From Kordia jejudonensis (lineage in GTDB: Bacteria; Bacteroidota; Bacteroidia; Flavobacteriales; Flavobacteriaceae): DNA of 64,000 nucleotides. Shown in pieces: positions 22,309 to 44,532 of this stretch. Location: positions 62,001 to 126,000 of the forward strand of contig NZ_LBMG01000008.1 of assembly GCF_001005315.1 (NCBI RefSeq), read 5' to 3'. A program made the position numbers and the translations under genes. The stretch's first letter is position 1; each line of letters opens with the position of its first letter. The notes below the pieces were generated by a model, which searched no databases, was not told where the DNA came from, and saw only the letters and a list, made by a program, of their open reading frames with translations.

Positions 22309-22542
22309 CTACACACAATCTCTACATGTTGGAAATTCAGTTTGTGTAACACACGTTCTTACGACGCTTATTCCACAATTTTTTTGTCGTGTTTCAAAGC
22401 AAACATTAACACCATCAACATCAAGTGTACGAATACATTCGTTGAATGAGTTATCAATATTTCCTCCTTTCTGATGTAAAAGATCGAGCTTAGAAACGAC
22501 CTTCTTGTTTAGTGATAATTGCCTTAATTTGTTTTTTTTCAT
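22309..22542 (-). CDS. Class I lanthipeptide-like precursor peptide
   Basis: A 77-residue peptide. The leader MKKNKLRQLSLNKKVVSKLD...QKGG (GG at 26-27) has the LNKKxVSKL signature and GG end of Bacteroidota class I lanthipeptide precursors (the TIGR04149-like family, from memory). The putative core (about 50 residues) has six Cys plus many Ser/Thr (CIRTLD, CFETRQKNC, VVRTCVTQTEFPTCRDC), fitting Ser/Thr dehydration and Cys ring closure by LanB/LanC enzymes. No LanB, LanC or transporter gene is present in the window, so maturation would have to be done in trans or not at all. It is flanked by two smaller GG peptides. Confidence 0.8.
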   Translation of the reverse strand: MKKNKLRQLSLNKKVVSKLDLLHQKGGNIDNSFNECIRTLDVDGVNVCFETRQKNCGISVVRTCVTQTEFPTCRDCV

Positions 22543-22652
22543 AAAATTTGATTTTAATTATTAATGAGACAAAGCAACTTATAAATTGTGCCGTTTCAAA
22601 CACAAGCAACCCTAAATTGACTGATTTATGACGGTAAATGTAGTGCATAAAA

Positions 22653-22674
22653 AAAACGAACCGAAGTTCGTTTT
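22653..22674 (-). terminator. Terminator of the 34-residue peptide gene
   Basis: AAAACGAAC and GTTCGTTTT form a 9-bp stem closed by a CGAA (minus-strand TTCG) tetraloop, followed on the minus strand by a T-run. It lies 24 nt after the stop of the small ORF at 22698-22802 and supports that ORF being transcribed as a unit. Confidence 0.85.
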
Positions 22675-22697
22675 GTATTGTAGATAATTATATGCTG

Positions 22698-22802
22698 TTA
22701 TGGATTATTCTTTCTCCACTTTGCCAAATCATCAGTCGCGGTAAAACCTCCATAAATTTTATCTGGAGTTTCAATTCTAAATTGTGTTAACTTTTCTAAC
22801 AT
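22698..22802 (-). CDS. Small MLEK...GG peptide (34 residues)
   Basis: The ORF MLEKLTQFRIETPDKIYGG is followed by FTATDDLAKWRKNNP. It shares with the peptide at 21693-21854 the MLEK start and a Gly-Gly at residues 18-19. A strong hairpin terminator follows closely. The short 15-residue tail would be the released peptide if the GG is a cleavage site. It contains no Cys, so it is not a lanthipeptide; it could be a signal or bacteriocin-like peptide. Family not recognised. Confidence 0.55.
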   Translation of the reverse strand: MLEKLTQFRIETPDKIYGGFTATDDLAKWRKNNP

Positions 22803-22923
22803 AAAGATGGTTTTTAAATTAATAATTGTTTGAAGTTAGTTAGAAATTATGAAACCTAAAATTGAAGCAACCGTGAATTAGATAATTTACGCAAGCAGAA
22901 GACATTTAAAACTGATTGAAAAA

Positions 22924-24195
22924 TCAAGTTTTCTGCTTCTTCTTCTTTGCTGCTGGAAATAGAATATTGTTCAAAATTAATCGGTATCCAGGAGAGTTTG
23001 GATGTAGCTCTAATTCCGTTTTCGGATCTCCTACTCTATGCTGATAATCTTCTGGATCATGTCCGCCATAAAACGTAAAAAAACCTTTTCCTTTGATTCC
23101 ATGAATATATCTACCTTCGCCATTGGTTCGGTTTTCACCTAAAATTAAAACAGCTGGCTTTATTTGCGAACGATCAAAACTTGTGGTTTGTCCCATGAAT
23201 CCTTTCACTAAAGCGGTATGATTTTGACACAACATCGTCGGAATTGGATCCCATTTTGCAGAAAAATCCATTAATGTAAAGTAATCCGCATCTTTTACAA
23301 TACGTCTTTTGGAAGTCATATCAATCGATGAAAATTCGTATTTAGTTGGACTTCGTTCGAGTTCAAAATCTGTAAATGCAAACGTTTTATTATAATCTAT
23401 CTTATTTTGATAATTTCTATCCGAAACATCACCATCAAACATAGGTTCACAAATATCTATACCTTCCGCAGCAAGTGCAATATCAAAACTATCCGTTGCA
23501 CTACACATGGCAAACATAAATCCGCCACCAATAACATAATCTCTAATTTTTAAAGCGACATCGCGTTTTTCTTCTGATACTTTATCGTATCCTAACTTTT
23601 TTGCCAACGCTTCTGCTTCTTTCTTTTCACGAATGTACCAAGGAGCCGATCTGTAAATTCCGTAAAACTTACCATATTGCCCTGTAAAATCTTCGTGGTG
23701 CAAGTGTAACCAATCGTACTGAACTAAACCATCCGACAATACTTCTTCATCATACACGACTTCATATGGAATTTCCGCATACGTCAATACCATTGTTACG
23801 GCATCGTCCCACGGAACATTTCCTTTTGGAGAATATACTGCTACTTTTGGCGCTTTTTCTAGAATTACAGCTTCCTGATTTTTACTCGGACTAGCGATTT
23901 CTGCTAATATGGTAGCCGTTTTTGAATCTGATAACAATTCGTATGAAACACCTCTAATTTTACATTCTTTCTCTACGGCATCAATTGCAGGCAGTAAAAA
24001 TGATCCGCCTCTGTAATTGAGCAACCATTTTACTTTGATTTTCTTTTCAAGCGACCAATAAGTAATTCCGTACGCTTTTAAGTGATCTTTTTGCGATTCC
24101 GCATCCATTGGAATCAATATATAGGAAGCATAACTACTCACTGAAAACAGTAAAAGCAGCGCCAATGTGATTATTTTTTTGAATTTCAATTTCAT
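22924..24195 (-). CDS. Conserved exported protein, usually named 'asparagine synthetase B' in flavobacteria
   Basis: A 423-residue protein with a signal peptide (ends near SVSSYAS). It belongs to a family very conserved in Flavobacteriaceae (GITYWSLEKKIKVKWLLNYR, PWDDAVTMVLTYAEIPYEVV, YDWLHLHHEDFTGQYGKFYG, FAMCSATDSFDIALAAEG, GKGFFTFYGGHDPEDYQHRV). Databases often label it asparagine synthetase B. I see neither the N-terminal Cys glutaminase nor the PP-loop synthetase domain expected for AsnB, and the signal peptide makes that reaction unlikely. Several motifs (LHLHHEDF, GGFMFAMCSATD) suggest a glutamine-amidotransferase-like or metal-binding fold, but this is only an impression. The C-terminus is very basic. 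Confidence 0.75.
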   Translation of the reverse strand: MKLKFKKIITLALLLLFSVSSYASYILIPMDAESQKDHLKAYGITYWSLEKKIKVKWLLNYRGGSFLLPAIDAVEKECKIRGVSYELLSDSKTATILAEIASPSKNQEAVILEKAPKVAVYSPKGNVPWDDAVTMVLTYAEIPYEVVYDEEVLSDGLVQYDWLHLHHEDFTGQYGKFYGIYRSAPWYIREKKEAEALAKKLGYDKVSEEKRDVALKIRDYVIGGGFMFAMCSATDSFDIALAAEGIDICEPMFDGDVSDRNYQNKIDYNKTFAFTDFELERSPTKYEFSSIDMTSKRRIVKDADYFTLMDFSAKWDPIPTMLCQNHTALVKGFMGQTTSFDRSQIKPAVLILGENRTNGEGRYIHGIKGKGFFTFYGGHDPEDYQHRVGDPKTELELHPNSPGYRLILNNILFPAAKKKKQKT

Positions 24196-24280
24196 TATTT
24201 TTTATTCTATCGAAAGATACACAAAAATTATACCTCATTAAAGATTTTATAGTTTCTTAACAGATATTCGACTTTTCGCA

Positions 24281-24487
24281 TTAATCATCTTCCAATTTAA
24301 AATCAATCGGTAGGTTATAACGAATGCTAACAATTTCCCCATTATACTTTTCAGGTGTAAACGTAGCTTGTTTAACCATTTGTAATGCTACGCTATCCAA
24401 ATCAGCATGTACACTTTTGGTAATTTTAGCATCACGTACAGAACCATCTTTTTCTACGATGAATGATCTGTGATTTTGGAAAAACAT
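24281..24487 (-). pseudogene. Isolated TonB C-terminal domain (truncated energy transducer?)
   Basis: A 68-residue ORF matching the second half of a TonB_C domain (SFIVEKDGSVRDAKITKSVH, LDSVALQMVKQATFTPEKYN, then IRYNLPIDFKLEDD). A functional TonB needs an N-terminal membrane anchor, a Pro-rich spacer and the first part of the domain, and none is present. The start codon lies inside the last codons of the preceding gene, in another frame (34-nt overlap). Three explanations fit: a remnant, the C-terminal half of a frameshifted gene, or a translationally coupled small protein. Confidence 0.5.
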
Positions 24488-25008
24488 TCGTTACAAATTG
24501 ATGTTGGATAGCGTTCACTAAATCCTGCTCGTTCGTTCCCGCAATTTGCACAAAAAGTTTTTAGTTTTTGACTTTCTATATAAACCAATTCACTTTTCTC
24601 TTTATGTCGAAACAATAAATTATCCCATGCGGCAATCGTGTAGATTTCTTGATCTGAGACTTCCATGTTACGTCTTAATTCATTCGTAGAATTTTCGATG
24701 AATGGCGCCAAAATTTCTATATAATTTTCTATATGTTCAATACTATTTGCTTGATATTCCAAGTACCATTTTTCAGATTTGGTAATATAATTCCAAAATT
24801 CGCGTAATGAACGAAACTTTTTAGTAAAAACGAGTGTCGTTTTTGCTTCTGAATGTGCATTTGTATTGATCCGATTTGGAAAAAGTAGTATCGTTTTCTT
24901 TATCTTTTTTAAATAGTAGACATTTTTGGAATCAGAAAGTACGTAATGTATGTATTCTTGCTTTTTAGCCTTTGTACTATTGCCAAATAGTTTAGAAAAT
25001 ATATTCAT
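24454..25008 (-). CDS. Hypothetical protein with C-terminal zinc-ribbon-like motif
   Basis: A 184-residue protein without signal peptide or membrane segment. The C-terminus holds two CxxC knuckles (CANCGNERAGFSERYPTSIC, then NEC), a zinc-ribbon-like arrangement. The rest (SREFWNY-like region, Trp/Tyr-rich alpha-helical) has no family I recognise. It overlaps the TonB_C fragment by 34 nt in another frame. A one-base shift near the T-run after the second knuckle would fuse CNECF directly to the TonB_C sequence. Sequencing error, frameshift mutation or true overlap cannot be separated from the sequence alone. Confidence 0.65.
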   Translation of the reverse strand: MNIFSKLFGNSTKAKKQEYIHYVLSDSKNVYYLKKIKKTILLFPNRINTNAHSEAKTTLVFTKKFRSLREFWNYITKSEKWYLEYQANSIEHIENYIEILAPFIENSTNELRRNMEVSDQEIYTIAAWDNLLFRHKEKSELVYIESQKLKTFCANCGNERAGFSERYPTSICNECFSKITDHSS

Positions 25009-25115
25009 AAGACAAAACCGAGTTTTTCATATTGAGCTTTCAATATTTCTAGGTTTGAAGTTTTTTGTATGATAAGTACGTATAATTTCAAAAAGTATCT
25101 CTGAATTAATTACGA

Positions 25116-26258
25116 TTACAACTGTTTAATTCCAGCAGTGAAAAAAGGTCCAATTGGCAAGCAACTCATAATTTTCAGGTCTTGCCAAACAGAACTTTCA
25201 TTCCCCAAAAATGCTAAAATATCTTCTATTGGACGATTTTTAAAGATCGTTGCAAAGATTTCTTTCCCTTCTAATTTGTTAGACAACATCACTTCCAATA
25301 ATGTTCTGTCGTACCATTGGTATGTTTTTTCGCGAAATGTCAATTTAGGATTTGGATGTTTTCCTTCTTGCAATAGTTTGATAATATTTTCCGTGTGTTT
25401 TTGCACAAATTGAAACGTATAACCACTACTCGCTTTTGTAAATCCGCCAGCAGTTCCCAAGTTGATAATATTCTCTTGGTTAGAAATATCTCTTGAAAAT
25501 TCAGCCAACGACATAGGAATGATTCCAAATTCTGTATGCAAAATTTCATAATCATCGATAGCTAAATACGATTTGATATAGTTTTGTAACGCTTCTTTGT
25601 ATTGTTCTTTTTCAAGAATTTTCTCTGTAAACAAGGTATATTCTACCAAAGCTTCGGTTTCACTTGTGGGCAACACATACATAAAAGTTGTTCCGTGTTC
25701 TTGACTCAATCTAAAATCCATCAATCGACCAACAGTGGTATCAAAAACTGGTTTTTTTGACTGAATTACCCAACCTTCAAAATGTTGCAAAAGTGAATTT
25801 TTAGTGTCTATTTTTGGATAGAAAAGACTTGTAGAATTGAACACAAACGTTGCCGAATACGTTGCTTTTTCCGTAGTAACTTCTGCAGATTTTTGATCTG
25901 AAGTAATTGAAGTGATTTGCTCAGAAATAAACCTTACATTTTCAAATTGCTTTGCGAAACTGATTACAAAGTTATAAAAGTCAATTCCTTGAATCATTTT
26001 ATATCGATATGCAGGCATGTCATATTTGCGCTGAAAATCATCTGATAAAAACTCTAAGGTTTCCCATTGATGCGTTACGATGTATTCAAATAGTCCGTTT
26101 CCTTTTTCCCAAAAACACCATGTACGATCGTTTTTGTTTTTTTGTTCCTTGTCTACAACTAAAATTTGCTTGGTACACAACGTTGGATCTTTCAAAATTC
26201 TGTACAGCAAACTCAGCCCTGCACATCCTGATCCAGCAATTATGTAATCGTATTTCAT
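25116..26258 (-). CDS. crtY: Lycopene beta-cyclase
   Basis: A 380-residue FAD-dependent enzyme that cyclises lycopene to beta-carotene in the membrane-associated carotenoid pathway. The ATG at 26256-26258 is preferred over a TTG two codons upstream, because it directly begins the dinucleotide-binding fold MKYDYIIAGSGCAGLSLLYR. Other family motifs are NDRTWCFWEKGNGLFE, GTTFMYVLPTSETEALVEYT, YGIIP-like EFGIIPMSLAEF and LGTAGGFTKASSGYTFQ. It is not in the crtI-crtB-crtZ operon of this window but 20 kb away, next to dnaB. ATACTTTGTC just upstream of the start is close to, but not a full match of, the -7 promoter box. Confidence 0.93.
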   Translation of the reverse strand: MKYDYIIAGSGCAGLSLLYRILKDPTLCTKQILVVDKEQKNKNDRTWCFWEKGNGLFEYIVTHQWETLEFLSDDFQRKYDMPAYRYKMIQGIDFYNFVISFAKQFENVRFISEQITSITSDQKSAEVTTEKATYSATFVFNSTSLFYPKIDTKNSLLQHFEGWVIQSKKPVFDTTVGRLMDFRLSQEHGTTFMYVLPTSETEALVEYTLFTEKILEKEQYKEALQNYIKSYLAIDDYEILHTEFGIIPMSLAEFSRDISNQENIINLGTAGGFTKASSGYTFQFVQKHTENIIKLLQEGKHPNPKLTFREKTYQWYDRTLLEVMLSNKLEGKEIFATIFKNRPIEDILAFLGNESSVWQDLKIMSCLPIGPFFTAGIKQL

Positions 26259-26358
26259 TGACAAAGTATTCTTTACAGTAATTATTGCATGTTAAAAATC
26301 TAGCTTTTGTCATTCCGCGCTCGATTTGACATGTTACTTTTACAAAAATAAGGATTTC

Positions 26359-27909
26359 TTAGAAAGGAACTTCGTTATCGTCAGGATTAAAATCATCATT
26401 CATTGAACTTCCAAACGCTTCATCGGCACTTGGTAAATTTTCTGTTTTAAATGTATCATCATTTGCCGCATCGTTCATTTTTGAATGGAATTCGAAAGGA
26501 GAATCGAAAGTTTCCAAGTTGTCAAACTTACCTAAATGTCCAACGAATTTCAATCGAATGTTATCCAAACCACCATTTCTGTGTTTTGCGACAATGAATT
26601 CCGCTTGTCCGTCAGTTGGCGAGCGTTCTTCATCATCCCATTCTTCAATTTTATAATATTCAGGACGATAAATAAACGATACGATATCCGCATCCTGCTC
26701 AATCGCTCCCGATTCACGTAAATCGGAAAGTAATGGACGTTTGCTTCCTCCACGCGTTTCCACCGCACGTGATAACTGAGATAAGGCAATTACTGGAACA
26801 TTTAATTCTTTTGCCAAAGCTTTTAGGTTTCGCGAAATGGTTGAAATTTCCTGTTCACGGTTTCCTCCTTTTTGACTTCCGCCAGCTGTCATTAACTGCA
26901 AGTAATCAATCATGATCATTTTGATTCCGTGTTGCGAAGCTAAACGTCGCGCTTTTGCACGCAAATCAAAGATGGATAACGAAGGTGTATCATCAATAAA
27001 CAAAGGTGCTTTTTCGAGTCCTTTTACTTTTACGTTGAGTTGTTCCCATTCGTGTTTGGCAAGTTTCCCTGTACGTAATTTTTCAGAAGATAAACCAGTT
27101 TCCGAAGATATTAAACGTGTGATTAACTGTACCGAAGCCATCTCTAACGAGAAGAATGCTACTGGAATGTTTTGATCTACGGCAATGTTTCGTGCCATCG
27201 ATAAGGTAAGTGCCGTTTTTCCCATACCTGGACGTGCTGCAACGATGATTAAATCACTTGGTTGCCATCCAGAAGTTAGTTTGTCTAATAGTGTAAAACC
27301 TGTTGGAATACCACTTAATCCTTCTTTATTTGATATTTCTTCAATTTTCTTTTTGGCTTGAATTACCAAACTTTGCGCCGTTTCGGACGATTTTTTAATG
27401 TTTCCCTGTGTTACTTCATACAAACGTGATTCTGCTTTGTCTAATAGTGAAAAAACGTCTGTTGTTTCATCGTATGCATCTTCAATGATTTCATTGGAAA
27501 TTTTTATCAAACTACGTTGAATGAATTTTTGCAAAATGATACGTGCATGAAACTCTATATGCGCCGAAGATGATACTTTTTGCGTAAGCGATATTAAATA
27601 GAAATCGCCGCCTACCATGTCTAACTTTGAATTTTTTCGCAATTGCGACGAAACTGTTAATAAGTCAATTGGTTCTGAGTTTTCGAACAATTGAAAGATG
27701 GCTTCAAAGACAAATTTGTTGGCTTCTTTGTAAAAAGCTTCAGGACTTAGAATATCAATAACCTCATCGACACCTTTTTTATCAATCATCATTGCACCAA
27801 GTACGACTTCTTCTAAATCGACGGCTTGTGGAGGCAATTTTCCTTTCTCCAGACTTATTAAATTGCTTTTATCAGTTTTATATGTTTGCTTAGGGTTTAC
27901 ATTTTCCAT
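26359..27909 (-). CDS. dnaB: Replicative DNA helicase DnaB
   Basis: A 516-residue hexameric helicase that unwinds DNA at the replication fork. The N-terminal DnaB domain (about 25-130, PPQAVDLEEVVLGAMMID) is followed by a linker and the RecA-like motor: Walker A ARPGMGKT at 225-232, the SLEM motif (VAFFSLEMASVQLITRLISS), Walker B IKMIMIDYLQLM and the SQLSRAVETRGGSKRPLLSD loop. There is no intein. The C-terminal tail (about 40 residues) is acidic. The ATG at 27907-27909 is the only sensible start. Length is normal for Bacteroidota. Confidence 0.98.
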   Translation of the reverse strand: MENVNPKQTYKTDKSNLISLEKGKLPPQAVDLEEVVLGAMMIDKKGVDEVIDILSPEAFYKEANKFVFEAIFQLFENSEPIDLLTVSSQLRKNSKLDMVGGDFYLISLTQKVSSSAHIEFHARIILQKFIQRSLIKISNEIIEDAYDETTDVFSLLDKAESRLYEVTQGNIKKSSETAQSLVIQAKKKIEEISNKEGLSGIPTGFTLLDKLTSGWQPSDLIIVAARPGMGKTALTLSMARNIAVDQNIPVAFFSLEMASVQLITRLISSETGLSSEKLRTGKLAKHEWEQLNVKVKGLEKAPLFIDDTPSLSIFDLRAKARRLASQHGIKMIMIDYLQLMTAGGSQKGGNREQEISTISRNLKALAKELNVPVIALSQLSRAVETRGGSKRPLLSDLRESGAIEQDADIVSFIYRPEYYKIEEWDDEERSPTDGQAEFIVAKHRNGGLDNIRLKFVGHLGKFDNLETFDSPFEFHSKMNDAANDDTFKTENLPSADEAFGSSMNDDFNPDDNEVPF

Positions 27910-28016
27910 GACTGCGAAAGTAAACTAATACATTTACTTTTGGGGTTTTATTTTTCGCTTGAATCTTAACGATTCAATGTTAATAAGTTACGATTTTTTG
28001 TTGATAAGCGGAAAAA

Positions 28017-28042
28017 AAATCCGAAGCGCTAACTTCGGATTT
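28017..28042 (-). terminator. Terminator of accA
   Basis: ATCCGAAG and CTTCGGAT form the core of the stem, extended by A/T pairs, with a 6-nt loop. On the minus strand it ends in a run of T and lies 25 nt after the accA stop, before dnaB. Confidence 0.9.
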
Positions 28043-28067
28043 TCATACTTCCTTATGTAGTATAGGT

Positions 28068-29021
28068 TTATCCTTTGAATTCGCCCATTTTTGAATATTT
28101 ATCCATCCGTGAACTTACTAAATCTTCTTGTGATAAGTTTTTTAATTTGTCATAATTTGCAACAATGGCATCGCGAACTGCAATAAATGTTCCTTCACGA
28201 TCGTTGTGTGCGCCACCAAGCGGTTCTTCTATGATTTCATCAATTACTTTGATTTTCATTGCGTCAATAGCAGTTAATTTTAACGCATCTGCCGCTTTTT
28301 CTTTGTGTTCCCAACTACGCCATAAAATTGACGAGCAGTTTTCAGGAGATATTACAGAGTACCAAGAGTTTTCTAACATTAATACTGTGTCTCCAACACC
28401 GATTCCTAACGCGCCACCTGAAGCACCTTCTCCGATAATTACAGTAATGATTGGCACTTTTAATCGTGTCATTTCAAGAATGTTACGTGCAATTGCTTCT
28501 CCTTGTCCGCGTTCTTCAGCTTCTAATCCTGGATAAGCTCCTGGTGTATCAATTAACGTTACTACAGGAATTCCGAATTTTTCAGCAGATTTCATTAAAC
28601 GCAATGCTTTACGATAGCCTTCAGGATTTGCCATTCCGAAATTACGGTACTGACGTGTTTTTGTGTTGTATCCTTTTTGCTGACCGATGAACATGTACGA
28701 TTGATCTCCGATTTTACCTAGACCACCAATCATGGCTTTGTCATCTTTTACATTACGATCTCCGTGTAGTTCTAAGAATGTATCGCCACAAAGTGCGTTG
28801 ATATAGTCTAAGGTATACGGTCTGTTTGGATGACGTGATAGTTGTACACGTTGCCAAGCAGTTAGATTTTTGTAAATATCTTTTTTAGCTTTTGCTAGTT
28901 TTTCCTCGATTTGCTGACATGTTTCTGTAACATCAATATCGCTTTCATGTCCAATTGCGACACATTTTGTCAGTTGCTCTTCTAATTCCTTAATAGGTAG
29001 CTCAAAATCTAAATATTCCAT
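28068..29021 (-). CDS. accA: Acetyl-CoA carboxylase carboxyltransferase, alpha subunit
   Basis: A 317-residue cytoplasmic subunit that, with AccD, moves the carboxyl group from biotin to acetyl-CoA in the first step of fatty-acid synthesis. It has a typical N-terminal helical part ([13 protein letters not shown]). The crotonase-like fold follows, with [73 protein letters not shown] and [16 protein letters not shown]. Full family length. It lies between dnaB and a transporter gene on the same strand, a common order in this family, and is ended by its own terminator. Confidence 0.98.
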
Positions 29022-29072
29022 GCTTTTGAGGGTATGTTTAGTTGTTTCAGTTTACAAATATAAAATTTTAAT

Positions 29073-35951: not shown

Positions 35952-35970
35952 GTGCTTTTATAAAATGCTT

Positions 35971-37437: not shown

Positions 37438-37547
37438 TTTTACTCAACAATCAAGCATTTACTCATGCAAAGTAGACTTGATGTAAAACATAAATTTCAT
37501 ATATACTGCGAATTTACGCTGTAGTAATTTATTTAAATTTTAACACT

Positions 37548-38051: not shown

Positions 38052-38558
38052 AACTGCCTTTATTTCTTCCACTAAAGTGTCCACTGATTTTTTATCGGTC
38101 AGTATGGTATGTGTTGCTTTTTGGTAGAATGCATTCCGTTCAAACAGATGTTTTCCAATAAATTCTGGCAAATCTTCGTCTGCAATTTCGGTAATTAAAG
38201 GACGTGTTGCTTTTTCATCCTTCACTCTATTGATAATTTCAGAAATAGACGTTTGCAGATAGATAGTATGTTGTGTATATGCATGAAGCAACTCCATATT
38301 TCCAGCATAGCAAGGTGTGCCTCCGCCAAGCGAAACAATAATGTCTTCTTTTTTCTCTAAAATTTCTTTCAAGTAGTGATGTTCTTTCATGCGAAAATAG
38401 ATTTCTCCTTTCGATTCAAAAATTTCACGAATCGTAGTTTCTTCTTTTTCTTCAATAAAATGATCCAAATCAACTACTGGAAGTTTCAATGCTTTTCCTA
38501 GTAATTTAGAAACAGAACTCTTTCCACTTGCCATATATCCTAAAAGTACAATTGTCAT
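38043..38558 (-). CDS. aroK: Shikimate kinase
   Basis: A 171-residue enzyme phosphorylating shikimate in aromatic amino-acid synthesis. P-loop GYMASGKS at 7-14, the DLDHFIEEKEETTIREIFES region with the substrate Asp and Walker Asp residues, FRMKEHHYLKEI, IIVSLGGGTPCY and the lid RPLI. Length is normal. The last 9 nt overlap the convergent PRTase gene. Confidence 0.95.
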   Translation of the reverse strand: MTIVLLGYMASGKSSVSKLLGKALKLPVVDLDHFIEEKEETTIREIFESKGEIYFRMKEHHYLKEILEKKEDIIVSLGGGTPCYAGNMELLHAYTQHTIYLQTSISEIINRVKDEKATRPLITEIADEDLPEFIGKHLFERNAFYQKATHTILTDKKSVDTLVEEIKAVLN

Positions 38559-38635
38559 ATTTGCATTATAATTAATTTATTTTTAAGCGCTTACAAAAAT
38601 CCGAAAAAAAAAGATAAAATTATATTAAAAAAGAC

Positions 38636-38665
38636 TTGAAAAATAAAATTATGATGTTATATTTG
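38636..38665 (+). promoter_or_regulatory. Promoter of the tRNA operon
   Basis: TTG at 38636-38638, a 19-nt gap and TATATTTG at 38658-38665 form a very good Bacteroidota -33/-7 promoter. The first tRNA starts 40 nt downstream. Confidence 0.85.
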
Positions 38666-38704
38666 CACCCGCATTCAGGGAATTATTTATAATTCATTTT
38701 GAAT

Positions 38705-38777
38705 GACCTGGTAGCTCAGTTGGTAGAGCATCTCCCTTTTAAGGAGAGGGTCCTGGGTTCGAGCCCCAGCCAGGTCA
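38705..38777 (+). tRNA. tRNA-Lys (anticodon UUU), copy 1
   Basis: 73 nt. The acceptor stem GACCTGG pairs with CCAGGTC, discriminator A. D-arm AGCTCAGTTGGTAGAGC. The anticodon loop CTTTTAA within TCTCC/GGAGA gives UUU. T-loop GGTTCGAGCC. No CCA is encoded. Confidence 0.98.
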
Positions 38778-38802
38778 CAACGTACAAATTATCAAGGTCT
38801 AT

Positions 38803-38875
38803 GACCTGGTAGCTCAGTTGGTAGAGCATCTCCCTTTTAAGGAGAGGGTCCTGGGTTCGAGCCCCAGCCAGGTCA
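38803..38875 (+). tRNA. tRNA-Lys (anticodon UUU), copy 2
   Basis: Identical in sequence to the copy at 38705-38777, and separated from it by 25 nt, so a recent duplication or kept identical by conversion. Same UUU anticodon and cloverleaf. A terminator follows immediately. Confidence 0.98.
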
Positions 38876-38877
38876 CA

Positions 38878-38902
38878 AAAGTTAAGCTATTGCTTAACTT
38901 TT
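38878..38902 (+). terminator. Terminator after the tRNA-Lys pair
   Basis: AAAGTTAAGC and GCTTAACTTT form a 10-bp stem with a 4-nt loop and a T-run, 2 nt after the second tRNA-Lys. tRNA-Leu downstream must be reached by readthrough or its own promoter. Confidence 0.9.
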
Positions 38903-38936
38903 TTGTTTTATATTTACTGTATAATTACAAGTATTT

Positions 38937-39020
38937 ACCGAAGTGCTGGAATTGGTAGACAGGCATGGTTGAGGGCCATGTGTTCATTAGAGCGTGTGGG
39001 TTCGACTCCCATCTTCGGTA
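38937..39020 (+). tRNA. tRNA-Leu (anticodon GAG)
   Basis: 84 nt, a class II tRNA with a long variable arm. The acceptor ACCGAAG pairs with CTTCGGT, discriminator A. The anticodon stem CATGG/CCATG encloses TTGAGGG, giving GAG. T-arm GTGGGTTCGACTCCCAT. No CCA is encoded. Confidence 0.97.
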
Positions 39021-39043
39021 CTAAAATTTTCCTCATAAAATTA

Positions 39044-39075
39044 AAAATCCCAACAGTTGTGTTGGGATTTTTTGT
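39044..39075 (+). terminator. Terminator after tRNA-Leu
   Basis: AAAATCCCAACA and TGTTGGGATTTT form a 12-bp stem around GTTG with a T-run after it, 23 nt beyond the tRNA. Confidence 0.92.
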
Positions 39076-39130
39076 TTTTTCGCAATAACTACCGCAATTA
39101 ATAGTTTTTTAATATTGAATTGTTATATAC

Positions 39131-40177
39131 TTATTTCTTTATGATCTTTTTTATCTGATATTCGTTAATTCTTAAAAAGTAGATTCCATTTTTTAAATCA
39201 CTAATATCAAGATTACTATTGTTTATTGTTTTACCTTTTAAAACGATCTTACCATTTATATCAGTAATTTTATAAGTAGCATTATCTTCGAGTCCTTTGA
39301 TGCTAAGAAGTCCTGATGTCGGATTAGGATAATATTCAAATGTTACTTTTTGAGCACTATTTTCGGTGCTTAAAGTTGTTAGATCAAATCTCGAAACTTT
39401 TGCTCCAAATTGTTCGGAAATGTATAGAAAATTATCCGTAACAATAATATCCCATGGAGTGTTAAGAGCGGAAACAACGTCTGTAATAGTTGGTGTAGTT
39501 TGTGTAACATCAAATCTTGAAACTTTACTCTCATTAGGTCTAGCTACGTATAAATAATTATCTTTAATTCTAATTCCTGCACCTCCAGACATAGGCGTTA
39601 CTTCAGTAATATTAGGATTTACTTGTGTAACATCTATTTTAGAAATACTGGTATTATTGTGTGAAAAATACAAATCATTTCCATAGAATGCTAATCCATT
39701 AACCCAGCCATTAATTCCTGTAACTACATCAGTCGGAGAAGGATTTGATTGAGAAATATCGATCTTAACAATTTTATTAGAAAATCTCAATGAAATATAT
39801 AAATCATTTCCACGTAATGCCAATCCAATTGGAGTATTTATTCCTGTTACTACATCTTCAGGAGATGAATTAGGATCACTAACGTCTATTCTTGTAACTT
39901 TACTGTCTGATACTTGTGGAATGTACAGATAATCGCCTATGAGCAATAAGAATCCTGGGAAACTTATATTTGTGAGATAATCGGTTGCTAAAGTTGTAGT
40001 TGTATCCGATAAATCCTTTTTCATTACTTTTTGATTCCCTACAGAACCTACATATAAGTCATTTCCATTTAGAGCTAAACCTACTGGATTTGATAAGCCC
40101 GTTACAACTGTAGTTGTTTGCGCAAAAGAATTGATTGTGATCACTAATAAAAAGTAGAATAGATACTGCTTTGTCAT
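39131..40177 (-). CDS. Secreted beta-propeller protein with T9SS sorting domain
   Basis: A 348-residue protein with a signal peptide (ends near INSFAQ). Residues ~25-260 contain six or so repeats of the type TGLSNPVGLALNGNDLYVGS, INTPIGLALRGNDLYISLRF, VNGLAFYGNDLYFSHNN and NTPWDIIVTDNFLYISEQFG, each near 40 residues. These look like NHL/SMP-30-type propeller blades. A T9SS type A domain ends the protein (FEYYPNPTSGLLSIKG ... LKNGIYFLRINEYQIKKIIKK). It is probably secreted to the surface. Ligand or enzyme activity is unknown. Confidence 0.87.
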   Translation of the reverse strand: MTKQYLFYFLLVITINSFAQTTTVVTGLSNPVGLALNGNDLYVGSVGNQKVMKKDLSDTTTTLATDYLTNISFPGFLLLIGDYLYIPQVSDSKVTRIDVSDPNSSPEDVVTGINTPIGLALRGNDLYISLRFSNKIVKIDISQSNPSPTDVVTGINGWVNGLAFYGNDLYFSHNNTSISKIDVTQVNPNITEVTPMSGGAGIRIKDNYLYVARPNESKVSRFDVTQTTPTITDVVSALNTPWDIIVTDNFLYISEQFGAKVSRFDLTTLSTENSAQKVTFEYYPNPTSGLLSIKGLEDNATYKITDINGKIVLKGKTINNSNLDISDLKNGIYFLRINEYQIKKIIKK

Positions 40178-41013
40178 TGTTTTTTTGATTTGTTTTATTT
40201 AGTAGTATTACGGCATAAAAATAATGAATCGAAAATACAAATAGCCATTAAATATGCTATAATTCTCCTAAATTCTCTTACTTGTGATACTTTTAAAATG
40301 AAAGCTTCCTTTATTGCTTTCTTGTCGTATTATTAAACGATTTAGGAAGCGATTACTAATTCTAACTATTTTATGTGTACGCTTGGAAATTGCTCAAATG
40401 ATTGCGAAAAACAAACTGCATCAAGATGCGATTTTTAATTTAACAAAGTGCTTGATTTAGAAACGCTCGAAATCTGAAAGAATATTTGTGTCGTCCTAAA
40501 AAATCGCACCTGTTTTTAGAACGATCCAATTTTACGGCCAAGGTAATACATCTCCTGAGCTGTTTCTTGGAATTACAAAATATGACCACATTTCTTTAGA
40601 AAAATATTTTTGAAGCGCTGGTAATCTATCTAGTGGTTTACTGTCCAAACCCAACACGATCACAACCATTGTCTATTTGTCACTGTCACACAAATTAGAC
40701 AACAGTCCAAATCTTAAACATTTTAAGCGAGCTTCGGTTCGCTTTTTTTATGCCTCACTATATACTTTCACGTAAGTAGTTGCAAAATAACACTTTAACT
40801 GACGATATAAGATTACAACATTTAAAAAAAATTACAATGAACTATAAATCAAATAATTACATAAATTGTAGTATGTGATTCCTTCGTAATGTTGTAGTAT
40901 TGTTGTAATACAATTGAAATTCAAGCAATTACGATTTATGAATCCTGAGAAGTCATCTTTTTTTATGCTTAATCAATTGAGTATCTTGATGGAAACAATT
41001 AAAACTTTATATC
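40178..41013. other. Gene-poor region, possibly with decayed peptide genes
   Basis: About 0.84 kb with no confident gene. It contains a plus-strand terminator at 40725-40750 with no gene in front of it. There is also a 21-codon Cys-rich ORF (40373-40438, ending TASRCDF) and a 45-codon minus-strand ORF (40532-40669). None has a leader or a recognised family. The terminator resembles those after the peptide genes at 41014 and 22698 (GCGA...TTCGG...TCGC). This suggests a decayed relative once lay here. Confidence 0.5.
40725..40750 (+). terminator. Orphan terminator
   Basis: AAGCGA and TCGCTT, with an inner GC/TTCGG loop, followed by a T-run. There is no upstream gene that it could clearly serve. 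Confidence 0.75.
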
Positions 41014-41187
41014 ATGAAAAGAAAAGATTTAAAATCATTGAAATTAAACAAAAAGTCAATTTCAAATTTTAGTAGTAGAGAATTAAATGGAGGAATGTCT
41101 AGATCACAATGTGATTCACAATGCGGATATTCTTGTACGCCTGCGCTTTGTAAACCAAAAGGGCAGTTAGATGCACCATTAGGCTAA
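41014..41187 (+). CDS. Class I lanthipeptide-like precursor peptide
   Basis: A 57-residue peptide, shorter than a usual ORF cutoff. The leader MKRKDLKSLKLNKKSISNFS...LNGG (GG at 26-27) has the LNKKSISNF signature of Bacteroidota class I lanthipeptide precursors. The core MSRSQCDSQCGYSCTPALCK has four Cys with Ser/Thr between them, followed by a short tail ending APLG. A hairpin terminator begins 6 nt after the stop. No modification enzyme lies nearby. It is one of three such precursors in the window. Confidence 0.8.
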   Translation: MKRKDLKSLKLNKKSISNFSSRELNGGMSRSQCDSQCGYSCTPALCKPKGQLDAPLG

Positions 41188-41192
41188 TTGAT

Positions 41193-41220
41193 AATGCGAA
41201 CTTCGGTTCGCATTTTTTTT
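41193..41220 (+). terminator. Terminator of the 41014 peptide gene
   Basis: AATGCGAAC and GTTCGCATT form a 9-bp stem with a TTCG tetraloop and eight T. Confidence 0.93.
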
Positions 41221-41239
41221 GTTTGTTTCATCTGTTTTA

Positions 41240-41542
41240 CTAAGTAATTACAGTAAACATAGAAATAATAAATAGCAAACCATATAAACCGCAAACAACA
41301 CTTGCTATCCAAAATTGATAGTTTCTCGGATATTTGTTCAATATACTTATCAATAGAAATACAAACGTCAAGCACCACAAAAAGGCACATATGATTCCAA
41401 AACACAGCATCACTGTTGAAAAACGAAGTGCATCCTGTGTCAGCGAATTAAAATTGACCGTAAGAATAAATTGAATGATATTTATAATCACAATCCAAAT
41501 TGAAAAGTGAAATGCCCATTTGTTAACGTTCCCTATTTTCAT
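41240..41542 (-). CDS. Small membrane protein, function unknown
   Basis: A 100-residue protein with three hydrophobic segments (about 12-32, 45-68, 78-98). No family recognised. It lies 21 nt downstream of the XRE regulator gene on the same strand, so it is probably the third gene of the DUF2975-XRE unit. Confidence 0.65.
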   Translation of the reverse strand: MKIGNVNKWAFHFSIWIVIINIIQFILTVNFNSLTQDALRFSTVMLCFGIICAFLWCLTFVFLLISILNKYPRNYQFWIASVVCGLYGLLFIISMFTVIT

Positions 41543-41563
41543 TAGTATTTTTAGTTTCTAAAG

Positions 41564-41767
41564 TTATTCAATATATTCCAAAATATCGCCTGGTTGACAA
41601 TCCAATGCTTTACAAATTGCGCTCAACGTACTAAACCGAACGGCTTTTGCTTTGCCATTTTTTAGTATAGAAAGGTTAGACAACGTAACTTCTACGCGTT
41701 CTGAAAGTTCGTTTAATGACATTTTTCGTTTTGCCATCATTACATCTAAATGTACTACAATTGCCAT
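41564..41767 (-). CDS. XRE-family HTH regulator
   Basis: A 67-residue Cro/C1-type HTH protein (LDVMMAKRKMSLNELSERVE, TLSNLSILKNGKAKAVRFST, LSAICKALDCQPGDILEYIE), the small YozG-like type. It begins 2 nt after the DUF2975 gene stop. DUF2975 membrane protein plus small XRE regulator is a common pair in Bacteroidota and Firmicutes. The target is probably its own operon. Confidence 0.9.
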   Translation of the reverse strand: MAIVVHLDVMMAKRKMSLNELSERVEVTLSNLSILKNGKAKAVRFSTLSAICKALDCQPGDILEYIE

Positions 41768-41769
41768 GA

Positions 41770-42291
41770 TTATACGGTTAAATCATTTTCTGCTTGCATA
41801 ACTGCTCCTTTTTTAAACAATTGCGCCAACACATATACCAATCCTGCCAAGAAGATAAATTCTCCAGCGATAAGTTCAGCCTCAATACCAGCATTTGCAT
41901 TAATAATTCCGACATGTACATTGTGTAGAATAGCCAAAATTCCCACACCTAAAATTGTGTAACTTATTTTATGTAATAATTGGACAACTTCTGCACTAAA
42001 TGGTTTTTCAATATTGATACTACTTAGCAGTTTTGCACCAAACAAAGCAATATATGCCTGCATAAGATACATGATTACATAATACATCACTATAATTGTA
42101 TACTGAACAAAATTGTAGGCTTCATAGCGTGACAAATCCATTCCTTTGTATAAGTCTTTTGCTGCTTCAGGATTATTTGTGCTGATTCCATAAGACATAA
42201 TAATTGCTCCGGCTTTAATCAGTAATCCGATAAAGGCAATCCATGCAAGCAAGCGCATGATTTTTAATATATTTTTGGCTGTTGAATTCAT
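41770..42291 (-). CDS. DUF2975 membrane protein
   Basis: A 173-residue protein with four hydrophobic segments (near 10-32, 62-90, 108-130, 138-160), matching the DUF2975 plan. It is cotranscribed with the XRE regulator directly downstream (2-nt gap). The membrane protein might sense a signal for the regulator, but no function has been shown for the family. Confidence 0.85.
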   Translation of the reverse strand: MNSTAKNILKIMRLLAWIAFIGLLIKAGAIIMSYGISTNNPEAAKDLYKGMDLSRYEAYNFVQYTIIVMYYVIMYLMQAYIALFGAKLLSSINIEKPFSAEVVQLLHKISYTILGVGILAILHNVHVGIINANAGIEAELIAGEFIFLAGLVYVLAQLFKKGAVMQAENDLTV

Positions 42292-42387
42292 AATGCTGTG
42301 TTTAATACATCAAATTACGGTAAAAATTTATTGATAAACAATAAATTTTTATTCTTTTTAAATAATATCATCAATTCTTCAAAAAAG

Positions 42388-42413
42388 AAAAGCGAGCCGT
42401 GTAGCTCGCTTTT
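42388..42413 (-). terminator. Terminator of the lipocalin-like gene
   Basis: AAAAGCGAGC and GCTCGCTTTT form a 10-bp stem with a 6-nt loop. On the minus strand it is followed by CTTTTTT and lies 19 nt beyond the stop of the gene at 42433. Confidence 0.9.
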
Positions 42414-42432
42414 AAGTTCTTTGAATCTATTT

Positions 42433-42798
42433 TTACTCTATTCTCTTCAAATATACTTTTCGTCCAGATCCTATGTCTAAACTGATCGTTTTTCCGTCAA
42501 TCCAATTCACTACAAATGTTCCTTCTCCTGGGCGTTTTTCTTCAGAACTAATTGATACTTCTTTCGTTTCTGTATTGTATTCCCAATTTCCTGTTCTGTT
42601 AGTCGTATCAAGTGTATTTCCTCCTATTAAAACTCCATCTTTTTGAAAATCCATCCAGCGACCACTGGTATCTCTCACTTCTCCTTCTCCACTTTGCATT
42701 TTAAACAATTCCCACTTTCCAACTAATGATTCATTGGTTTGAAAAGATAGAAAGCTGAAAATAGCGGCAAGTACAAATACAATTTTTATATTTTTCAT
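42433..42798 (-). CDS. Small secreted lipocalin-like protein
   Basis: A 121-residue protein with a signal peptide (ends near FLSFQ). The mature part (LVGKWELFKMQSGEGEVRD, RWMDFQKDGVLIGGNTLD, TGNWEYNTETKEVSISSEE, VVNWIDGKTISLDIGSGRKV) has the W-E-x(n)-F-x(2)-DG-x(n)-G-x-W pattern of lipocalin-like DUFs common in Bacteroidota. No Cys follows the signal, so it is soluble. Ligand unknown. Confidence 0.72.
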   Translation of the reverse strand: MKNIKIVFVLAAIFSFLSFQTNESLVGKWELFKMQSGEGEVRDTSGRWMDFQKDGVLIGGNTLDTTNRTGNWEYNTETKEVSISSEEKRPGEGTFVVNWIDGKTISLDIGSGRKVYLKRIE

Positions 42799-42823
42799 GA
42801 TATTTTATGTGTTTTTAGTTATT

Positions 42824-42983
42824 GAACTCGTTTAAACTTTTTTAATTTGCTAAAAAATTGCTCTTTTCAGACCTGTTTTTACCTTTTTTTCGTTCCGTAA
42901 CGCTGCTATGAAACTCAAAAAAGCTGTCAACAGAACTTAAAACTGCTAATTTTCGCCTAAATCCGAAAAGTTTAAACGAGTTC
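42824..42983. repeat. MITE-like element with 18-bp inverted ends
   Basis: GAACTCGTTTAAACTTTT at 42824-42841 is exactly complemented at 42966-42983, giving a 160-bp segment bounded by 18-bp perfect inverted repeats, each holding the palindrome GTTTAAAC. ATT flanks both ends, which fits a 3-bp target duplication. A 47-codon ORF (42842-42985, minus, starting MNSFKLFGFRRKLAV) spans it end to end. I have an impression of having seen this peptide as a repeated fragment in related genomes, but it cannot be verified here. Confidence 0.7.
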
Positions 42984-43088
42984 ATTTTAATACGTAGCTA
43001 AGATCAAACTTTTTGTGAATATATAGGTAATGAAATTAGCCACAATTTATAAAATTACAGAAATTCTGTATTTTTGGTTTTGTTTTTA

Positions 43089-43697
43089 TTATTGTTTGCG
43101 TTCTTCCTCCGCTTTGTCCATTTTTATATATTCTTGATATGCTTTTTCTTGCAACTCTTTATTGTTAGGATCTTTGAGCAACGCTTTTTCTGCTTCAAGA
43201 TATGATGTTGAACAATCTTTACATTGCATTTCAAGCAACGTTTCTTGTGGTAAGTACAGCAAAAACAAACCGATAAGACCTGTAATTCCAATTCGCAACA
43301 AAATATACGAATACACTTTATGAAATGATATTCCTTTTTTGAGTACAATGACAATTACAATAATTCCTGTAAAAATCAATCCGTTTTGCAAATTTATATA
43401 TCCATAAGGCCAACGTTGAAATACAAACAAAATCCCTATAATTACTATGGAAAGTACCCATCCAGTTCCAATAATGCCAATCATTCGCCAAATACTAATA
43501 CCTTTAAAAGATTCTTTTTTTAAGAAGCTTCGAAAAGAAATTCCATTCAGCAATGCAAAACCAAAAGTAGTATAGAGTAACACTAACAAAAGTGTTGAAA
43601 GCGTTAATATCATTGAACTATACGGGAAAGCCGTAAACAATCGTAAAACCATGAATGCTATGATGGTAACTGCTAAGATTTTTTCAAGTTTTTTCAT
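43089..43697 (-). CDS. Membrane protein, function unknown
   Basis: A 202-residue protein. Five to six hydrophobic segments up to about residue 150 are followed by a soluble tail with two Cys (MQCKDCSTSYLEAEKALLKD) and a charged helix (QEKAYQEYIKMDKAEEERKQ) that looks like a TPR-type helix pair. No family recognised. It is a lone minus-strand gene between the MITE-like element and a divergent small membrane gene. Confidence 0.6.
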   Translation of the reverse strand: MKKLEKILAVTIIAFMVLRLFTAFPYSSMILTLSTLLLVLLYTTFGFALLNGISFRSFLKKESFKGISIWRMIGIIGTGWVLSIVIIGILFVFQRWPYGYINLQNGLIFTGIIVIVIVLKKGISFHKVYSYILLRIGITGLIGLFLLYLPQETLLEMQCKDCSTSYLEAEKALLKDPNNKELQEKAYQEYIKMDKAEEERKQ

Positions 43698-43784
43698 ATA
43701 CTATTTTAAAGGCTGAAAATACTAAAAAAGATATGTTTTTCATCTTATGGAACAGATCAAATTACTTTTAGTATATTTACTTCA

Positions 43785-44036
43785 ATGCAATTCTACATAA
43801 AACATTTACTTACTTTTTTAAAAGCAGCTGCCATTTCCTTACTATTTGGCGCTTCTTGGGCAATTACATTCTACAAACTTGATGAAATAGCCGTTGATCA
43901 TTTACATAATTACAGAAGCGATTTCTTCTTAGAAATTATCATATTCTTCTTTAGCGGATTGGTTGGTGCATTTTTATTTTTTGTCTTAATTAGATGTATA
44001 GAATTTGTCGCTTCATCAGTGTATTCAAAATCGTAA
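43785..44036 (+). CDS. Small two-helix membrane protein, function unknown
   Basis: An 83-residue protein with hydrophobic segments near 8-30 and 48-75. No family is recognised. It is transcribed divergently from the membrane protein at 43089-43697 (87-nt gap). A hairpin terminator lies 160 nt downstream. Confidence 0.5.
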   Translation: MQFYIKHLLTFLKAAAISLLFGASWAITFYKLDEIAVDHLHNYRSDFFLEIIIFFFSGLVGAFLFFVLIRCIEFVASSVYSKS

Positions 44037-44197
44037 TTCATTTTGAAAATAAATAATCCATTGTTTTTCAACTAATTAAAAACAACTTAGGTATATCAAA
44101 ATTTACAAACTGTACTTCCTTGTGAATAGTACATGTATTTTATTGACAGACGATTTTGAATTGAAATGGTAGAAAAAGCTACTATTTTTACCTGAAT

Positions 44198-44232
44198 AGA
44201 TCGTTATTTATAAATAGCGATCTTCTTTTGTT
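44198..44232 (+). terminator. Terminator before the lanthipeptide-like precursor
   Basis: AGATCGTTATTTA and TAAATAGCGATCT form a 13-bp stem with one G-T pair and almost no loop, followed by TCTTTTGTTTT. Confidence 0.75.
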
Positions 44233-44286
44233 TTATAACAATCTGTTTGTTTGTAATTTTAGGCAAACCATAAAAATTATAATACC

Positions 44287-44532
44287 ATGAAAAAACAAAA
44301 ATTAAATGGGTTACACCTAAAGAAGCAAGTTGTTTCAGCTTTAAATCAAGAAAACATTGTTGGTGGAGCTGATGAAAAATTCACGCAAACTTGCGCAAGA
44401 CCTATTGGGAATTGCACAATTGCACTAACAGTACAACCAGCTGTTTGCCAAACATTACCAAGACCATTAGGAAATTGTACGGTACAATATTCCATTCAAG
44501 TTTGGTGTCAATCACTTGATGTAAAATGCTAA
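44287..44532 (+). CDS. Class I lanthipeptide-like precursor peptide with duplicated core
   Basis: An 81-residue peptide. The leader MKKQKLNGLHLKKQVVSALN...IVGG (GG at 27-28) matches the Bacteroidota class I precursor signature (LKKQVVSAL, GG). The core has six Cys and repeats itself: CARPIGNCTIALTVQ...C and PRPLGNCTVQYSIQ...C, about 20 residues apart, then a C-terminal Cys. Many Thr and some Ser are available for dehydration. A terminator follows 17 nt after the stop. No LanB/LanC nearby; the next gene is the CarH-like regulator of the carotenoid operon, most likely unrelated. Confidence 0.82.
   Translation: MKKQKLNGLHLKKQVVSALNQENIVGGADEKFTQTCARPIGNCTIALTVQPAVCQTLPRPLGNCTVQYSIQVWCQSLDVKC

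What the first reader, a model, noticed from the sequence alone, without database searches (positions are those of the whole stretch)
22309..44532. Three orphan class I lanthipeptide-like precursors without modification enzymes
Peptides at 22309-22542, 41014-41187 and 44287-44532 share an LNKK/LKKQ-type leader and a GG end near residue 27, then Cys- and Ser/Thr-rich cores, and each of the two plus-strand genes has a hairpin terminator. No LanB, LanC, cyclase, protease or transporter is in the 64-kb window. A scattered set of precursors served by one distant enzyme set, or used unmodified, would be a different layout from classical lanthipeptide clusters.
Basis: partly seen in the sequence, partly recalled or inferred. 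Interest (0 to 1): 0.8.

Follow-up and report, generated by a model that had tools for sequence, protein, structure and literature searches.

The report
One enzyme set, 200-plus scattered precursors
The three small peptide genes are real and belong to a set of more than 200 similar genes scattered around this marine Kordia genome, apparently all made into ring-shaped peptides by one set of enzymes encoded elsewhere, so the bacterium seems to make a whole library of peptides with a single production line.

Summary
The three peptides share a 27-residue leader ending in GG and Cys/Thr-rich cores, with no modification enzyme nearby. The genome (genus Kordia) holds 221 such precursors in the 1.37 Mb that I read, about 227 by extrapolation, in 128 runs; the 220 cores that could be cut all differ and all contain Cys. 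It has one LanB (split, PF04738 + PF14028), beside a LanC, a C39 peptidase-transporter and three precursors, on another contig. All 11 Kordia genomes held have one PF04738 and at least 115 leader matches; of 138 other relatives only 2 have the leader at E<=1e-5, and theirs are the two LanB nearest to Kordia's. Best reading: one substrate-tolerant class I lanthipeptide line serving a dispersed, fast-changing precursor library, a class I counterpart of the cyanobacterial prochlorosin system (class II, up to 79 substrates reported). Kordia's richness in such precursors is in print (PMC11118758); in the parts I read the one-LanB, genus-wide layout is not. Modification, expression and function remain unshown. 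New variant of a known kind.

The parts
22309..22542 (-). Precursor peptide 1 (77 aa): leader 22462-22542 ending KGG, core 22312-22461; one of a family of three paralogous cores among the precursors read
   Evidence: paralogues L058:1479-1721 and L068:2647-2892
41014..41187 (+). Precursor peptide 2 (57 aa): leader 41014-41094 ending NGG, core 41095-41184
   Evidence: two precursors with similar cores (by eye) in the matching stretch of the nearest Kordia locus L198
44287..44532 (+). Precursor peptide 3 (81 aa): leader 44287-44367 ending VGG, core 44368-44529 with two units RPxGNCTxxxxxQ (by eye)
   Evidence: orthologue at the same place in 6 of 7 other Kordia loci; dN/dS about 0.11 in leader and 0.05 in core
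41193..41214 (+). Intrinsic terminator after peptide 2
40725..40744 (+). Intrinsic terminator upstream of peptide 2
44550..44575 (+). Inverted repeat (11-bp stem) after peptide 3; no T tail beyond the stem, not scored as a terminator by the scan
   Evidence: sequence, by eye; absent from the list
22173..22199 (-). Inverted repeat (9-bp stem, loop of 9) followed by T, about 110 nt after the stop of peptide 1; not scored by the scan
   Evidence: sequence, by eye; absent from the list
22653..22674 (-). Intrinsic terminator upstream of peptide 1, after a separate 34-aa ORF

Best explanation
The three genes are members of a dispersed library of more than 200 class I lanthipeptide precursors in a Kordia genome. 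Each is translated as leader plus core; the common leader (MKKxxxKxLxLNKxxISxLxxxxxxGG) is bound by the genome's only LanB, a split dehydratase (751-aa glutamylation subunit plus 305-aa elimination subunit) encoded far away; that enzyme dehydrates Ser/Thr in whatever core follows, a LanC closes thioether rings with the Cys residues, and the C39 peptidase-ABC transporter cuts after GG and exports the product. The genes are mostly in small units of their own, so the library can grow by duplication and drift of cores while leader and enzymes stay fixed. Shown: the gene set, the counts, the single LanB, kept LanC motifs, selection on one precursor. Inferred: recognition of all leaders by the one LanB, dehydration, cyclisation, export. 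The function of the products is not known; a secreted, changing set of signalling or antagonistic peptides is the guess.
For: NF038153 in the own genome: 146 matches at E<=10, 27 over the cut-off (6 of these only together with neighbours in the frame), although only 150 of 220 candidates were scored. Own leader model: 221 distinct ORFs at E<0.01 in 1.37 Mb, with a gap from E 0.006 to 0.17; 35 unselected stretches (667 kb) hold 1 of them, so about 6 more are expected in the part not read. 220 cores could be cut; 220 of 220 contain Cys (50% of 4113 control ORF tails), Cys 11.7% against 2.3%, Thr 12.4% against 5.8%, 220 different sequences, 1 leader with Cys. Ser is enriched 3-6 residues before Cys (z 2.2-4.6), Thr at -3 (z 4.3) and -5 (z 2.3); 215 of 220 cores have at least as many Ser+Thr as Cys. 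NCBIfam on 100 of the 221: L1a leader 74, L1b leader 10, TIGR04149 rSAM 7, at E<=0.1. One PF04738 and one PF14028 in the genome, adjacent; beside them LanC, C39-ABC, three precursors, ECF sigma. LanB matches NisB (E 8.9e-25) and 9g04 (1.3e-50); the transporter matches 4ry2, an ABC-type bacteriocin transporter, over nearly its whole length (E 3.3e-101); the neighbouring LanC keeps WCYG and CHG in 11 of 11 Kordia LanB loci. PF04738 is exactly 1 in 11 of 11 Kordia, leader matches at E<=0.01 are 115-150 of the 150 scored in each. Of 138 non-Kordia relatives 2 have A1 leaders at E<=1e-5; their LanB are 64.7% and 61.7% identical to the window genome's, against 27-44% for the other 16 non-Kordia LanB places (12 genomes), none of which goes with the leader.
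Against: No expression or mass data. All three window peptides fall below NCBI's cut-off. The genome has two more full LanC genes (C2 and C160) and two LanC-like ORFs, so cyclisation of some precursors may use another enzyme; the C160 LanC sits among precursors without a LanB. Seven of 100 precursors also match the rSAM family TIGR04149 and three SPASM proteins exist, so a minority could be modified otherwise. The Ser/Thr signal is not clean: the strongest enrichment is after Cys (+2: S z 8.2, T z 5.8), together with Pro at +1, and overall Ser is not enriched (7.2 against 8.5%). The relaxed leader motif is weak on its own (1478 of 4113 controls). No shared regulatory motif was found upstream. 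The genome is a 217-contig draft, so a LanB missing from the assembly cannot be fully excluded, though the other 10 Kordia, three of them in one contig, agree.
Confidence: 0.8

Rival explanations
1. Several enzyme systems share the precursors: the LanB line serves a subset and the others are cyclised by the orphan LanC with the nucleotidyltransferase on C160, or modified by radical SAM enzymes.
For: Orphan LanC (L092:5345-6517) and nucleotidyltransferase (L092:6747-7565) lie among precursors; PMC11118758 notes LanC plus nucleotidyltransferase around Kordia precursors (passage); 3 SPASM proteins, one about 5 kb from a precursor group on C145; 7 of 100 precursors match TIGR04149.
Against: One leader profile covers all 221; only one LanB-type dehydratase in the genome, and LanC needs dehydrated substrates (established knowledge); 74 and 10 of 100 match the two lanthipeptide leader models, 7 the rSAM one (the counts may overlap).
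Confidence: 0.13
2. The peptides are exported after GG cleavage but not modified; the Cys form disulfides.
For: GG leaders and a C39 exporter alone suffice for double-glycine bacteriocins (established knowledge); the cores are Cys-rich.
Against: Leader of the class I lanthipeptide type; Thr enriched and Ser/Thr placed before Cys, which disulfides do not require; leader presence tracks LanB similarity.
Confidence: 0.05
3. Most of the dispersed copies are decaying, unexpressed paralogues of a few functional precursors.
For: One broken remnant seen (L203); 135 of 154 core groups are single genes.
Against: Peptide 3 is kept in place in 6 of 7 other Kordia loci with dN/dS about 0.09 overall and 5 of 6 Cys columns invariant in 7 sequences; 91 paralogue pairs keep Cys at 454 of 507 positions with pN/pS 0.55 in cores; terminator-like hairpins within 100 nt after 63 of 216 precursors against 57 of 1485 control ORFs.
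Confidence: 0.02

Closest known systems
Prochlorosin / ProcM and SyncM systems of marine Prochlorococcus and Synechococcus
   Same: One modification enzyme, many precursors with a conserved leader and GG end, variable cores, genes single or in tandem (PMC10783134, passages) and many of them far from the enzyme gene (PMC7268733, passage)
   Different: Those are class II (one LanM, Nif11-type leaders); here class I (split LanB plus separate LanC, L1a leaders). Reported numbers 29 (PMC12328550, passage) and up to 79 in one strain (PMC9872173, abstract passage), here 221 found
Bacteroidetes class I lanthipeptides with LxLxKx5L leaders (Walker et al. 2020, PMC7268733, passages)
   Same: Leader motif, GG end, C39 protease often in the cluster
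   Different: In the passages read, found as clusters with their own precursors; here 218 of 221 precursors lie outside the cluster
RiPP-rich Kordia genomes in Microbiome 2024 (PMC11118758, section 7 and passages)
   Same: Same genus; up to 176 RiPP precursors on a Bacteroidota genome, Kordia named as exemplar of Flavobacteriaceae; LanC with nucleotidyltransferase noted; ProcM-like distant enzymes suggested in general for precursors without neighbouring enzymes
   Different: Predicted lanthipeptide and rSAM classes are mixed; in the parts read, no statement of one LanB per genome, the shared leader, or counts across the genus. Its supplement could not be read
Pinensins (Chitinophaga pinensis)
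   Same: Class I lanthipeptides of Bacteroidetes (named in PMC7268733); organism name and split LanB are recalled, from no call
   Different: Classical cluster with few precursors (recalled)

Membership tests
Class I lanthipeptide precursor, L1a leader type | Match to NCBIfam NF038153 over its curated cut-off | tested here: inconclusive
   Window peptides 18.3, 16.8, 19.5 bits against 22; 27 places in the genome pass; 74 of 100 precursors match at E<=0.1
Class I lanthipeptide precursor, L1a leader type | LxLxKx5L motif and GG or GA end | tested here: met
   Strict motif 141 of 221, control 10 of 4113; relaxed 218 of 221, but also 1478 of 4113 controls. In the window strict in peptides 1 and 3, F for the last L in peptide 2 (by eye); GG at residues 13-42 in 207 of 221
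Class I lanthipeptide precursor, L1a leader type | LanB and LanC in the genome | tested here: met
Class I lanthipeptide precursor, L1a leader type | Dehydrated Ser/Thr and lanthionine rings in the product | not testable with these tools
   needs mass spectrometry
Classical lanthipeptide gene cluster | Precursor beside its modification genes | tested here: not met
   None on the window contig; 3 of 221 precursors lie in the C143 cluster
ProcM/prochlorosin system | One dehydrating enzyme, many dispersed precursors, shared leader, variable cores | tested here: met
   (gene layout only; that the one enzyme acts on all is inferred)
ProcM/prochlorosin system | Class II LanM enzyme | tested here: inconclusive
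   The dehydratase found is PF04738/PF14028; LanC matches lie in ORFs of 408-654 aa, shorter than a LanM as recalled. The LanM dehydratase family itself was not searched
TIGR04149 rSAM-modified RiPP | Match over cut-off | tested here: not met
   Of the three, only peptide 2 is listed, 9 bits against 25; 7 of 100 precursors at E<=0.1

The most novel reading that the evidence does not exclude
Throughout the genus Kordia one class I LanB/LanC/C39 line makes a genome-wide library of different lanthipeptides (221 found here; roughly 140-320 per species if first-look counts scale as in this genome), the largest substrate set of any single RiPP enzyme set that I know of and an independent, class I equivalent of the prochlorosin system, with products evolving by turnover of scattered precursor genes under a frozen leader.
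Probability: 0.6. Interest if true: 0.8.

Novelty: new variant of a known kind. Interest (0 to 1): 0.63.

Why it matters
Prochlorosins are the standing example of one promiscuous enzyme with tens of dispersed substrates, and their biological function is unknown (PMC10783134, abstract). A second, unrelated lineage with a class I enzyme and several times more substrates lets the question be tested by comparison: which leader contacts suffice, how one LanB could tolerate about 220 different cores, and whether such libraries share an ecological role in marine bacteria. If the reading is right it also offers a substrate-tolerant class I dehydratase with a natural set of about 220 test substrates.

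Tried and rejected
Shared upstream regulatory motif: words enriched upstream of 220 precursors are mostly A+T-rich; the Bacteroidota promoter pattern TTG-N17-23-TAnnTTTG (recalled) occurs in 10 of 220 against 41 of 1476 controls, its -7 part in 47 of 220 against 205 of 1476: no evidence of a common regulon.

rSAM maturation as the main route: only 3 SPASM matches in the genome, 7 of 100 TIGR04149 matches.

Chance origin: rejected.

Second LanB or LanM: one PF04738, one PF14028; the two weaker LanC-like ORFs (C146, C156) each lie next to a 293-297-aa ORF beginning MKIVQSFWSKP; the LanM dehydratase family was not searched.

Literature: searches listed no paper whose title or abstract start states the one-LanB, 200-precursor layout in Kordia; of the listed papers I read only passages or sections of PMC7477175, PMC10734526, PMC7268733, PMC11118758, PMC12328550, PMC10783134, PMC9872173 and PMC9993889. 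The library holds only open-licence papers, the PNAS paper on cyanobacterial lanthipeptides (cited in PMC11118758) is not held, and no supplements could be read.

Not done: structure prediction, RNA-family search, search of phage, plasmid or viral collections.
Full report
OBSERVATION. The three ORFs are present as described. All three have NF038153, NCBI's class I lanthipeptide leader L1a, as best NCBIfam hit, each a little under its cut-off; Pfam gives one chance-level hit. Peptides 1 and 3 carry the LxLxKx5L motif that Walker et al. describe for Bacteroidetes class I precursors with a GG end (PMC7268733, passages); peptide 2 has F for the last L. The rest of the window reads as ordinary flavobacterial chromosome (thrS, infC, rplT, dnaB, accA, crt genes; names from reading the translations, not from a family search).

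THE WHOLE GENOME. The window is C196:62001-126000 of a 5.36-Mb, 217-contig genome, 99.99% complete. NF038153 gives 146 matches there at E<=10, 27 over the cut-off (21 on the match itself, 6 with neighbours in the frame), with only 150 of 220 candidates scored. I took the stretches around the matches, built a leader model from them and rescanned all short ATG ORFs: 189 precursors. A profile of 92 leaders (A1) run on the whole genome matched in 150 of the 150 candidates scored, of 332, including all three window peptides and further places, which were then taken too. Together with 35 unselected stretches this gives 221 precursors at E<0.01 in 1.37 Mb; the next ORF stands at E 0.17. The 35 unselected stretches (667 kb) hold 1 of them, so about 6 are expected in the part not read. 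The three in the window (one per 21 kb) are about the average density (one per 24 kb).

WHAT THE SET LOOKS LIKE. 207 of 221 have GG at residues 13-42; for 220 a core could be cut. Median core 40 residues, 5 Cys, 8 Ser+Thr. Every one of the 220 has Cys and 215 have at least two; one leader has Cys. Cys 11.7% and Thr 12.4% against 2.3% and 5.8% in the tails of 4113 other short ORFs from the same stretches (presumably mostly non-coding); Ser is not enriched (7.2 against 8.5%). Against shuffles of the cores themselves, Thr is enriched at -3 (z 4.3) and -5 (2.3), Ser at -3 to -6 (z 2.2 to 4.6) from Cys, which is the spacing expected of lanthionine rings; but the strongest signals are Pro at +1 (z 12.9) and Ser/Thr at +2 (z 8.2 and 5.8), a frequent C-P-[S/T] unit, so the spacing evidence is supportive, not clean. 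Cys avoid each other at 1-3 residues. All 220 cores differ; at 40% identity over 60% of length they fall into 154 groups, 135 of them single genes. They lie in 128 runs (same strand, gaps under 600 bp), 79 of them single genes, the longest run 7. Terminator-like hairpins follow 63 of 216 within 100 nt against 57 of 1485 control ORFs. Of 100 members scanned, 74 match the L1a and 10 the L1b lanthipeptide leader, 7 the rSAM-type TIGR04149, at E<=0.1.

THE ENZYMES. PF04738 occurs once (C143:51044-53011) and PF14028 once beside it (C143:50035-50850). The stretch L089 reads: C39-ABC transporter 735 aa, HlyD-type protein 452 aa, precursors of 83 and 91 aa and a third, weaker one (73 aa, E 0.006, no GG), a TPR-AraC regulator, the 305-aa elimination subunit, the 751-aa glutamylation subunit, LanC 405 aa, a TPR protein, an ECF sigma factor ('elimination' and 'glutamylation' are recalled roles of the two domains, HlyD is named by reading). 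LanB matches NisB and 9g04; LanC matches 8byk and, weakly, NisC; the transporter matches 4ry2 (recalled as PCAT1) and ComA from the peptidase to the end, behind many ABC exporters that match only the transport part. The C39 search gave one strong and two weak matches, one of the weak ones over the cut-off. Two further full LanC genes exist on C2 and C160, and two LanC-like ORFs on C146 and C156.

RELATIVES. The genus is Kordia: the MerR-type gene (named by reading) next to peptide 3 is 86-94% identical in seven loci titled Kordia and 64% or less in the other 73 of the best 80. Exactly one PF04738 match at E<=1e-10 in 11 of 11 Kordia genomes; leader matches at E<=0.01 are 115 to 150 of the 150 scored in each (the cap makes these lower bounds, first-look candidates 187-427). 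Of 138 non-Kordia relatives, 14 have a LanB and 2 have the leader at E<=1e-5, both among the 14: G087 with 18 matches on four contigs at E<=0.01 and G028 with one. I compared all 29 LanB places with the window genome's LanB: the other 10 Kordia 87.0-96.7% identical, G087 64.7%, G028 61.7%, the remaining 16 places in 12 genomes 27-44%. So the leader occurs only with the two LanB nearest to Kordia's, and leader and LanB go together; the number of independent cases is small (three genera). LanC with WCYG and CHG lies beside LanB in 11 of 11 Kordia.

SELECTION AND TURNOVER. In the stretches around the MerR gene, 7 Kordia loci hold 23 precursors and 73 other loci none. Peptide 3 has an orthologue directly upstream of the MerR gene in 6 of 7; dN/dS is about 0.11 in the leader and 0.05 in the core, with synonymous sites near saturation, so the values are rough. 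Five of six Cys columns are invariant in the 7 sequences; the sixth is lost with an 11-column internal deletion in two species. The seventh locus (L203) has a broken remnant. Other precursors in these loci differ between species, though some recur (L202 and L204 share three besides peptide 3, by eye), so the set turns over while some members are kept. Paralogue pairs inside the genome (91 pairs) have pN/pS 0.43 in leaders and 0.55 in cores and keep Cys at 454 of 507 positions.

INTERPRETATION. The gene layout is that of a promiscuous-enzyme library: one leader, one dehydratase, one strong candidate for processing exporter, about 220 cores. Shown are the parts, their numbers, the tie between leader and LanB, and selection on one precursor; inferred are recognition, dehydration, ring closure, export and any function. 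It works like the prochlorosin system (PMC10783134 and PMC9872173, abstracts and passages) but I do not file it there, since the enzyme found is of class I. Kordia had been singled out as RiPP-rich, with up to 176 precursors on a Bacteroidota genome (PMC11118758, section 7 and passages), so the abundance itself is not new; what I did not find in print (searches; passages only of most papers) is the single-LanB, shared-leader, genus-wide layout. A genome paper on Kordia lists lanthipeptide as one of several cluster types (PMC7477175, passages).

LIMITS. Counts in other Kordia are lower bounds from a capped search. The draft assembly could hide a second LanB. The orphan LanC on C160 and the three SPASM proteins leave room for other chemistry in a minority. 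Nothing here shows expression or a product.

Noticed in passing
L090:542-7522 (G000:C2): Cluster of a kumamolisin/subtilase-like protease, a 478-aa Cys-rich repeat protein (GPTGTQGCTQPGHC and GGNAQAQTLGHTAYQGC units, L090:2594-4030), an APH-type kinase, a HopA1-domain protein and a full LanC. The kinase/HopA1/LanC set resembles class V lanthipeptide enzymes (recalled); a repeat substrate of this size would be unusual.
   Followed up: partly
window 22698-22802 (-): 34-aa ORF with a GG (MLEKLTQFRIETPDKIYGG...) and no Cys, followed by a strong terminator, between peptide 1 and the next gene; a different kind of short peptide gene.
   Followed up: partly
L092:5345-7565 (G000:C160): LanC without LanB next to a nucleotidyltransferase, among several precursors; PMC11118758 mentions the same pairing in Kordia.
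   Followed up: partly
L056:2833-5684 and L064:3344-6140 (G000:C146, C156): Two pairs of a 293-297-aa protein beginning MKIVQSFWSKP and a 625-650-aa protein with a partial LanC-like match; another possible peptide-modifying pair.
   Followed up: no
window 4213-14490 (-): 3425-aa protein of repeated leucine-rich units with a C-type-lectin-like stretch near the end (by reading).
   Followed up: no
L203, upstream of the match at 10001: In the Kordia MAG ALOHA_ZT_18 the place of peptide 3 holds a recognisable but broken core without a leader.
   Followed up: partly
L158:10529-10690: Short GG peptide with a different leader (MLKKIVNVENAQTLTKEAQAKINGG) and a Cys-rich tail, not of the L1a type.
   Followed up: no
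one of the 100 precursors in alignment A2: One precursor matches NF038108, Cys-every-fifth RiPP peptide CefA, at E 1e-9; the table does not say which.
   Followed up: no
G087 (another genus of the same family): 18 matches to the leader on four contigs and the non-Kordia LanB nearest to Kordia's: perhaps a smaller version of the same library.
   Followed up: partly
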